Below, piece after piece: positions 111 to 3,423 of a stretch of DNA of 64,000 bases; the first letter of the stretch is position 1; every line of letters starts with the position of its first letter. A model generated the notes under the pieces. It did no database searches and was not told the origin of the DNA. It saw nothing but the letters and a program-made list of their open reading frames with translations. The translations under genes were made by a program, and so were the position numbers. This DNA comes from an uncultured Verrucomicrobiota bacterium. Its GTDB lineage: Bacteria > Verrucomicrobiota > Verrucomicrobiia > Opitutales > Opitutaceae. The stretch lies in contig CAJXQX010000001.1 in NCBI GenBank assembly GCA_913058185.1, forward strand, positions 1 to 64,000, written 5' to 3'.

Positions 111-309
111 AGAGGAGGGGATCGTGGGATGAATGCTTAGCTCGTCAAGCGCGAGATCGCATCAATTCACCTAGATATGGGATTAGATCTGCGCAAAATT
201 GCTTCTTGGAAGGCTGAAATATCAGAGGACCTCGTCCGGTATGATATCAGGCCCTTCGGCCAATCGGAGGCGAAACGGACTTGAGCCCAGAGGTGAGCTG
301 GTTGAAACC

Positions 310-3300
310 ATGAGTATGTCGCCGCGGTTTCACTCTTTTCCCAATCTGGTCTTGCTGAGTATGATTTGGTTGATTGGAGCGTGTCTTTTAACGCTGGTCG
401 GCGTGGCTCAAAACTCCGAGGGGGAGTCGGGGTCAGCCTCCAAAATCACGAGTTTGGAAGACTTTTGGGTATTATCCGCGACTGAGCGCGACCAAGCCCA
501 ACCTATTGATCTCGATTTCGAAGTGCTGTTTTGCGATCCGGAGTGGCAAGTGCTGCATGTGAGGAGCGATTCCATTGCCACGTATATCTTTCCTAGTGAA
601 ATTTTGCCGATTCGGGCGGGAGATCAGGTATCGGTAACCGGCTACACCAATCCGATGCAAAACACCTTTTCGATTGGTGAAGCCACCTAGGAAGTGCATG
701 GCAATACGCCATTGGAGAGCAGTTTGATCAATCCGGGGCAGGTGAATCATCAGGAGTGGATCGACAGGCTCGTGCGGATGAAAGGATTGGTCGAGAGCCA
801 GGAGTTGCTCGAGGCCAAACACCTCGAGCTTCGATTGATAGCCGGAGGTCAGCGGGTGGCAATTTGGGTCATGTTAAATCCTGAAGAACCTGTTCCTCAA
901 TTGGAGGGTGAGATCGTAAGCTTGACGGGAGTCTATGCCCCGAAATTTGAAAACAATGGGGACGTGGATCGGCTCGAGGTTTTTTGTGCGAGCAGCGAAT
1001 AGATCGACTCAATTTCCCGCCTCGAAAATTACCTCAAGTTTGATACCCCGGCGTTGGCGATCGGAAATGTGGAAAACACATTGAGTGATGCGGATTTGAT
1101 TCGAGTGGTAGGGCGTCGGATCGGGCCGATGGCAAGTGGGGCCTTCTGGCTGCGGGATGAAACGGGTCAGATCCGAATCGAAATCGGTCAACGTCGCGCT
1201 CCTGATTCTGACGTGAACGTCGAAGTAATTGGTCGTCCCGTAGTCGACGGGATCGAACGTAGATTGACCCATGCATTGTGGCGCCAAGTTCCTGGTTCCA
1301 GTGCGGCCGTATCGATTGTGAGCGGACCGGTTCTTTTGCACCGGTTGGCCGCGACGGTGATGGAACTATCCTTGGCTCAGGCGGCGCAGGCTCATCCCGT
1401 TGAGATCACGGGAGTAGTCACGTGGTCCCAACCCAACGTGAGCAGAGTCTTCTTGCAGGACAGTTCGGGTGGAGTGGGCGTGGAGTGGCCTTTCGAATTG
1501 GGGGAAGTTCCTGCGTCCGGACAGTTAATCAATGTCACGGGAGTTACTCAGGTGGGCGATTTTGCTCCCATTGTGAAAGCCGAAACGGTGGAAGATCAGG
1601 GTAGAGAATATTTTCCGCGGGCGGAGTCTATCAGTTGGGAGCAGGCGATGCTGGGACTGGCTGAGGCGCAGTGGGTGAAGATGACAGGTTTTGTATTTGC
1701 CGCACAGCGGTAGGGTGGCTCGGCCCGACTAAACATTTCCACTGCATCGGGAGAAATGGTCGCTCGGTTTCCTTCGGTTTCCGAGGTGTCAAATTTAGTG
1801 GGATCAGTGGTGACTCTCACGGGGGTTTGGGTGGTCGATGCGGATGATGACCGGAGACTACGGGAGGTGGAGTTGTGGGTTCCTAATATTGAAACGGTGG
1901 AGGTATTGGACTCTGCTGAAGCCGACCATTTCGCCCTCACTGCCGTTCCGTTGGCCGAGCTGGATCGTTTCGATTCGACCCGCTCATTTCACGAGCGCGT
2001 CAGGACGAAAGGTTCGGTGCTACATTGGGATGGCAATGGTCGTATTTATGTCGGGAACGGGGAAATGGGAATTCGGGTACACTCTCGACAGTTACAACCT
2101 CTCCGCCGAGGCGATCGGGTCGACTTAGTCGGATTTCAGGGGAGGGACGGAAATCATCCTATCCTACGTGAGGCGAGCTATCAGGTTATAGGCTCGGTCG
2201 ATGTCGTTCCTTCGAGCAAGTTTGCCGACGGAGATGATCTTTCTAAAGTGGCGGATGGGTCTTTGGTTGAGATCGAGGGTCGTTTGGTCGAGCGAATTGA
2301 TTTTGGAATAGAGACCCATTTAGCGCTGCGTAATGGCGCAGAAGTATTTGTGGTTGAATTTTCTTTGAGCAGAGAAGATCGGATCCAGCAATTGCCAGCG
2401 CTGGGGAGCTTCTTGCGAGTCACGGGAGTGGGCGTGCTCAATTACGACGATCAAGGCAATCGGATGGGGTTTCGAATTCTGGCGAGTTCCCCCAATGATG
2501 TTGAATTGCTCCGGGCGCAAGGTTGGTGGACTCCCCAGCGGATAACACTCGTGGTTTCGTCGCTGATTGGCTTAGTCTTGATTTCGTTGCTTTGGGTCAG
2601 GTCTTTACGTCGACGCGTGTGGATGCAGACCATTAAGATCGAACAGCAGATGCAGCGAGCCTCTGAGTTGGAAGCGGATTTGCAACGGACGTCGCGGATG
2701 GAGTCGTTGGGTTCACTGGCGGAGGGGATCGCTCGAGACTTCGATGGGTTGTTAGATCGGATCAAAGTTCAGACCACTCAAGTGCTGAACCAGGAGAGAT
2801 TGACCATCGAAGGACGCCGAGGGCTTGACCAAGCGCGAGCAGCGCTGCTTCGCGCGCAGGATCTGACGAAGCGACTGTCATCGCTTTCTTTGGAGCGAAA
2901 GCCGGAACTTGAATCGCTTGATCTGGCGGCATTCTTGCGCCGGGAAGTCGATGCCTTTGAAGCTGGCCCCTCAGTCAAAATCATCTGGCAGATTGCCGAC
3001 AGTGTTCCGGAAATCCCGGCGGATCGTGGGTAGCTTCGGGAAGTCATATACAATTTGATGCTCAATGCCGTTCAGGCCATGTCGCGAGGAGGCACGATCA
3101 AGATTGTGCTGAAGCCCGTTTCGATCACAGCCAACGATGAGGATTCTCTGCTGCCGTTGGGGCCCTATTTGAGGTTAACGGTGCGGGACAGTGGGGATGG
3201 GATCTCAGCACCCAATTTAGACCAGGTATTTGATCCTTATTTCACGACTCGTCCGGCGGCGAAGGGATTGGGATTGTCAGTAGTCTATGCGATCGTGCGG

Positions 3301-3423
3301 CAGCACAGCGGACGCGTGGTGGTCGAATCCACGCCGATGGCCTGCACCGAAGTGATGATCTGGTTTCGGATTGAAACTGATGATTGGTCGAATCCGCCTT
3401 ACGCGGACGTTGATTTAACCTGA
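310..3423 (+). pseudogene. Sensor histidine kinase-like gene with OB-like N-terminal repeats, interrupted by four in-frame TAG codons (688, 1000, 1711, 3031)
   Basis: ORFs 199-690, 694-1002, 1054-1713, 1756-3033 and 3055-3423 are all in the same frame with only TAG between them. The C-terminus has HATPase motifs NLMLNAVQAM, VRDSGDGI and FDPYFTTRPAAKGLGLSVVYAIV. Likely start is ATG at 310 before a signal/TM segment. Pseudogene versus readthrough is unresolved. Confidence 0.75.

What the first reader, a model, noticed from the sequence alone, without database searches (positions are those of the whole stretch)
199..3423. One sensor-kinase-like gene carrying four in-frame TAG codons and no other interruption
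The five listed ORFs (199-690, 694-1002, 1054-1713, 1756-3033, 3055-3423) all start at positions congruent to 1 mod 3. The only breaks are TAG at 688, 1000, 1711 and 3031, and the gene ends in TGA. The inter-ORF sequence stays coding-like (e.g. IDSISRLENYLKFDTPALAIG; GGSARLNISTASGE; LREVIYNLMLN). Ordinary decay should also give frameshifts and TAA/TGA stops. Possible explanations: amber readthrough/suppression of a long OB-repeat sensor protein, a young pseudogene formed by CAG->TAG transitions, or sequence error. TAG is a real terminator for other genes here (e.g. lptB at 5787, rpiB at 13688, the sulfatase at 23390), so genome-wide reassignment is unlikely.
Basis: partly seen in the sequence, partly recalled or inferred. 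Interest (0 to 1): 0.85.

Follow-up and report, generated by a model that had tools for sequence, protein, structure and literature searches.

The report
Young broken sensor-kinase gene (pseudogene)
A long sensor-kinase-like gene in an uncultured Opitutaceae bacterium is interrupted by four TAG stops because it is a recently inactivated gene that is broken in different ways in different strains, with no sign that the cell reads TAG as an amino acid, so this is ordinary gene decay.

Summary
In detail: the frame at 199-3423 carries TAG at 688, 1000, 1711 and 3031, no other interruption, and ends in TGA. Readthrough or recoding is not supported. The genome has a full RF1 gene. None of its 44 detected tRNAs has a CTA anticodon, and it has no pyrrolysyl-tRNA synthetase above cut-off. 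TAG terminates 160 of 511 long ORFs. Neighbouring coding ORFs in one frame are not separated by TAG unusually often. All-TAG is only mildly improbable (about 5%) given the codons present.

Public metagenome proteins of the same species settle it. One ends exactly at TAG 688. One has glutamate at 1711, so that stop is polymorphic, and ends elsewhere. One carries an inferred out-of-frame deletion of about 2.35 kb inside the gene. An intact relative (87% identical) exists. The sister species G005 has a single TAG in the signal peptide, at a different place. Orthologs in G007 and G006 are frameshifted, though assembly error is not excluded there. Most orthologs, though not G003 and G006, have also lost the phospho-accepting histidine.

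Best reading: a young, strain-polymorphic pseudogene of an OB-repeat sensor (pseudo)kinase beside hflX. It is ordinary, and interest is low.

The parts
241..3423 (+). Degraded gene of a secreted or membrane OB-repeat sensor histidine-kinase-like protein
   Evidence: Frame read with TAG as X or Q; P0001 aligns over 241-3402 in one frame; Pfam HATPase_c 8.6e-18 and BOF 5e-4, the latter below its cut-off
688..690 (+). In-frame TAG 1 (W in nearly all relatives)
   Evidence: the independent sequence P0121 ends exactly here
1000..1002 (+). In-frame TAG 2 (W, Q or R in relatives)
   Evidence: P0114 begins only after it, at the GTG at 1069
1711..1713 (+). In-frame TAG 3 (E in relatives and in the conspecific P0114, so polymorphic)
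3031..3033 (+). In-frame TAG 4 (Q in all relatives), in front of the N-box of the ATPase domain
2539..2600 (+). Predicted membrane segment (RITLVVSSLIGLVLISLLWVRSL); the conspecific fragment P0114 ends at 2556 just inside it
   Evidence: membrane assignment by reading the sequence only
2695..2760 (+). Degenerate H-box (RMESLGSLAEGIARDFDGLL): the phospho-accepting His position is Arg
3034..3420 (+). HATPase_c domain, N, G1, F and G2 boxes still recognisable
   Evidence: Pfam PF02518 spans the fourth TAG (residues 905-1021 of the read-through protein)
605..2955 (+). Stretch that corresponds to the internal deletion in a conspecific strain (P0122); TGCC at 605-608 and 2952-2955, 2347 bases, out of frame
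   Evidence: P0122 follows frame +1 to residue 100 and then frame +2 from 2951 onward; the deletion is inferred from the protein sequence
37..110 (-). tRNA-Gln (TTG anticodon), conserved neighbour, not a suppressor
3415..4707 (-). hflX, intact and syntenic neighbour in the genus
   Evidence: 77-91% identity beside the kinase in G005, G002, G007 and G001; partial match beside it in G006

Best explanation
This is a young pseudogene of a large sensor protein: a signal peptide, several OB-like repeats, a membrane segment, and a histidine-kinase core whose phospho-accepting histidine is already lost. The protein became dispensable in this species. Nonsense mutations then accumulated, each stopping translation, and different strains carry different lesions. 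That all four stops are TAG reflects the G-ending codon usage (TGG, CAG, GAG, TCG have TAG as a one-step neighbour) plus chance. Shown: the stops, their varied sense ancestry, independent lesions in conspecific sequences, an intact relative, and no means to read TAG. Inferred: loss of function, and why the sensor became dispensable.
For: An intact 87%-identical relative, P0001, exists, with sense residues at all four sites. The conspecific P0121 (17 members) ends exactly at 688. The conspecific P0114 (32 members) has E at 1711, begins after 1000, and ends at 2556. The conspecific P0122 (found on 4 contigs, the longest 12 kb) has an inferred out-of-frame deletion of about 2.35 kb and lacks the window's Y75C change. 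RF1 is present. There is no CTA-anticodon tRNA and no PylS above cut-off. TAG ends 160 of 511 long ORFs, and TAG does not exceed the other stops between adjacent coding ORFs (19 TAG, 22 TAA, 14 TGA). All-TAG has p of about 0.05. At sites conserved in outgroups the window and P0001 lineages changed equally often (14 and 14), but the window's changes are more radical (mean BLOSUM 0.07 against 1.29), as expected if constraint was lost recently. Orthologs are frameshifted in G007 and G006.
Against: Four stops with no TAA, TGA or indel in this copy remain mildly unlikely for neutral decay. The sister species G005 also carries a TAG and nothing else, at a different site. The gene shows purifying selection over most of its history (third positions differ most in every segment). 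The conspecific lesions are known only from protein records, so the exact stops in P0114 and P0122 could not be read from DNA. P0114 could in principle end at a contig edge. Frameshifts in G006 could be assembly errors.
Confidence: 0.9

Rival explanations
1. Amber readthrough or suppression: the cell inserts an amino acid at all four UAG codons and makes the full sensor, perhaps as a low-level or regulated product.
For: Only TAG interrupts this copy, and one TAG interrupts the G005 ortholog; coding-like conservation on both sides of each stop; a Pfam domain spans the fourth stop. A survey proposes that some bacterial in-frame stops are read through (PMC7918605).
Against: No CTA tRNA in G000 and none among the 30 G005 tRNA loci typed of 41 detected; RF1 intact; TAG is a major terminator; TAG sites are not shared between sister species; a conspecific strain has a large out-of-frame deletion. 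Four leaky stops in series would leave almost no product (inference).
Confidence: 0.03
2. Assembly or sequencing error: the gene is intact and the stops are artefacts of a low-coverage or strain-mixed metagenome assembly.
For: The source is a 159-contig draft whose contig starts at a repeat just before the gene; 1711 and 3031 are seen only in this assembly; 1711 is E in another sequence.
Against: 688 is confirmed by the end of P0121 and 1000 is supported by the start of P0114; those sequences carry other differences, so they are not copies of the same assembly; other lesions occur in other strains.
Confidence: 0.05
3. Split gene: the fragments are translated separately and form a functional multi-chain sensor.
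For: Several fragments begin near possible starts (ATG 1756, GTG 694).
Against: No clear ribosome-binding sites upstream of the internal starts (by eye); P0114 lacks the stop at 1711; the ATPase domain itself is cut at 3031; a strain has lost two thirds of the gene.
Confidence: 0.02

Closest known systems
Young bacterial pseudogenes (recent, strain-polymorphic gene decay, as described for Salmonella and Shigella: PMC2916853, PMC3218036, titles and abstracts only)
   Same: Intact relatives exist, different lesions occur in closely related strains, and sequence is otherwise well conserved
   Different: This copy happens to carry only TAG stops and no indel
In-frame stop codons in conserved bacterial genes proposed to be read through (Belinky et al. 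2021, PMC7918605)
   Same: In-frame TAG in a gene with a history of purifying selection
   Different: Here the stops are four, not shared between species, and accompanied by a large deletion and apparent frameshifts in relatives
TAG-recoded codes (phages with suppressor tRNAs; pyrrolysine archaea and bacteria)
   Same: Only TAG interrupts the frame
   Different: No suppressor tRNA, no PylS above cut-off, RF1 present, TAG widely used as a terminator
OB-repeat histidine-kinase family of Opitutaceae (P0005, annotated 'ATP-binding protein' of Synoicihabitans lomoniglobus)
   Same: Same domain order and the same place beside hflX
   Different: That copy is intact; its H-box carries Gln in place of His

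Membership tests
Bacterial pseudogene (young) | Reading frame interrupted relative to an intact homolog | tested here: met
   Four stops against the intact P0001 at 87% identity
Bacterial pseudogene (young) | Independent disabling lesions in related strains | tested here: met
   P0122 inferred out-of-frame deletion, P0114 different end, P0121 shares the stop at 688; known from protein records only
Bacterial pseudogene (young) | Relaxed constraint on the affected lineage | tested here: inconclusive
   Equal numbers of changes at conserved sites (14 and 14), but more radical ones in the window lineage; too young to show a rate difference
Bacterial pseudogene (young) | No functional product | not testable with these tools
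   Needs expression or proteomic data
UAG recoding or suppression | tRNA with CTA anticodon | tested here: not met
   44 tRNAs found and typed, none CTA; the draft is about 99% complete, so a missed tRNA is possible
UAG recoding or suppression | RF1 lost or altered | tested here: not met
   prfA match over cut-off with no stops; partially altered function not testable
UAG recoding or suppression | TAG avoided as a terminator, other genes with in-frame TAG | tested here: not met
   TAG ends 160 of 511 long ORFs; no TAG excess between in-frame coding ORFs in 1.27 Mb, 31% of the genome
Pyrrolysine system | PylS | tested here: not met
   Only a weak sub-cut-off match, of the kind most control genomes also give
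Sensor histidine kinase | HATPase_c domain | tested here: met
   PF02518, 8.6e-18
Sensor histidine kinase | Phospho-accepting His in the H-box | tested here: not met
   Arg at the His position in the window, G005 and G002, Gln in G001 and G007; His kept in G003 and G006

The most novel reading that the evidence does not exclude
The TAG-only pattern in two sister species (four sites here, one other site in G005) reflects tolerated UAG in this gene: a tRNA missing from the draft genome, or context-dependent near-cognate decoding, lets a trace of full-length sensor be made, so that TAG is retained while other lesions are purged in these lineages.
Probability: 0.03. Interest if true: 0.75.

Novelty: new member of a known kind. 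Interest (0 to 1): 0.12.

Why it matters
It matters little by itself. It is a useful caution: a frame with several identical stops and no indel looks like recoding, yet codon composition alone makes all-TAG about a one-in-twenty event, and conspecific metagenome proteins reveal the other lesions. It also shows a large OB-repeat sensor with a degenerate kinase core that is apparently being lost in several Opitutaceae lineages.

Tried and rejected
Suppressor tRNA: all 44 RF00005 hits in the genome typed, none CTA; 30 of 41 G005 tRNA loci typed, none CTA. RF1 loss: rejected. Pyrrolysine: rejected. Genome-wide TAG tolerance: 1.27 Mb fetched, codon and hexamer models, no TAG excess; the single-codon model had little power. 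Other kinases with TAG: G023 C58 has one TAG in an unrelated hybrid kinase, taken as background. Named genomes: the genome-contig scan with P0001 gave only remote kinases.

Full report
Observation. The frame beginning upstream of 199 runs to TGA at 3421 with only four interruptions, TAG at 688, 1000, 1711 and 3031. Read through, it is one protein: P0001 from a metagenome, intact at 1054 aa, aligns from window 241 to 3402 in a single frame at 87% identity. Pfam finds a HATPase_c domain (8.6e-18) that spans the fourth TAG, and a sub-cut-off bacterial OB-fold match.

Where it lies. The window is contig 1 of a 4.09-Mb, 159-contig draft genome. A same-genus member, G001, has a contig length equal to that of the Synoicihabitans lomoniglobus record, which the taxonomy places in Opitutaceae, Verrucomicrobiota. 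The gene sits between tRNA-Gln (TTG) and hflX; the hflX side is conserved in G005, G002, G007 and G001, with a partial match in G006.

Could TAG be sense? RF1 is present, over cut-off and unbroken. All 44 tRNAs found by the Rfam model were typed with ARAGORN, and none has a CTA anticodon. PylS gives only the weak hit that most control genomes give. TAG ends 160 of 511 long ORFs in 1.27 Mb, against 187 TGA and 164 TAA. Adjacent coding ORFs in one frame are separated by TAG 19 times, TAA 22 times and TGA 14 times, which follows ordinary stop usage. There is no sign of genome-wide tolerance in the 31% examined.

How odd is all-TAG? From the gene's own codons, 47-48% of single-base nonsense changes give TAG under three mutation models, so four of four has p of about 0.05. 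The sites read W, W/Q/R, E and Q in relatives, so the stops did not all come from CAG.

Relatives settle it. P0121 (149 aa, 17 members) is the same species and ends exactly at the first TAG. P0114 (496 aa, 32 members, 99% identical) begins after the second TAG, has E where the window has the third TAG, and ends at 2556 where the window is open. P0122 (112 aa, found on four contigs, the longest 12 kb) matches the window for 100 residues apart from one (it keeps Y where the window has C) and then continues with the sequence found at 2951 in another frame. This implies a deletion of 2347 bases between two TGCC tetranucleotides (computed from the coordinates, inferred from the protein). So conspecific strains carry different disabling lesions, and at least one window stop is polymorphic. 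In the sister species G005 (64% identical) there is one TAG, inside the signal peptide at another position, and an independent metagenome protein, P0003, also starts only after it. The orthologs of G007 and G006 are frameshifted; hflX in G007 is intact, which speaks against general indel error there, while G006 is an incomplete draft and may contain errors.

Age and selection. Between the window and G005 third codon positions differ about twice as often as first positions and two to six times as often as second positions in every segment between stops, so the gene was under selection for most of its history. Against outgroups, the window and P0001 lineages each have 14 changes at conserved sites, but the window's are more radical (Y to C, C to W, G to C, A to E; mean BLOSUM 0.07 against 1.29). 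This fits recent loss. The H-box histidine is Arg or Gln in most orthologs and His in G003 and G006, so the family had drifted from canonical histidine-kinase chemistry before the gene broke.

Verdict. A young, strain-polymorphic pseudogene. What remains unproven is the exact DNA lesion in P0114 and P0122, and whether 1711 and 3031 are present in other assemblies. The readthrough idea survives only if a tRNA was missed in the draft.

Noticed in passing
window 1-110; G000 contig C56 end (L065 15072-15359); L080 5049-5293; L010 5301-5689: Beside the tRNA-Gln(TTG) gene lies a tandem repeat (about 135-base unit) that contains the 3' end of that tRNA (GCTGCCCGACATGGGTT); contig C56 ends in it with 55 bases identical to the start of contig C1, so it broke the assembly. 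Similar repeats lie beside the same tRNA in G005 and G003.
   Followed up: partly
window 2695-2760; G001, G002, G003, G005, G006, G007 orthologs: The phospho-accepting His of this OB-repeat kinase family is Arg or Gln in most Opitutaceae orthologs while the ATPase boxes are kept: a possible pseudokinase family.
   Followed up: partly
window 5774-5789, minus strand: lptB ends in TAG, and the next gene (hprK-like) begins in the same frame 12 bases later, so readthrough would fuse them; taken as coincidence.
   Followed up: no
L082 (G023 C58:42283-43029, minus strand): A hybrid sensor kinase in another genus of the family has a single in-frame TAG inside its ATPase domain, otherwise intact.
   Followed up: no
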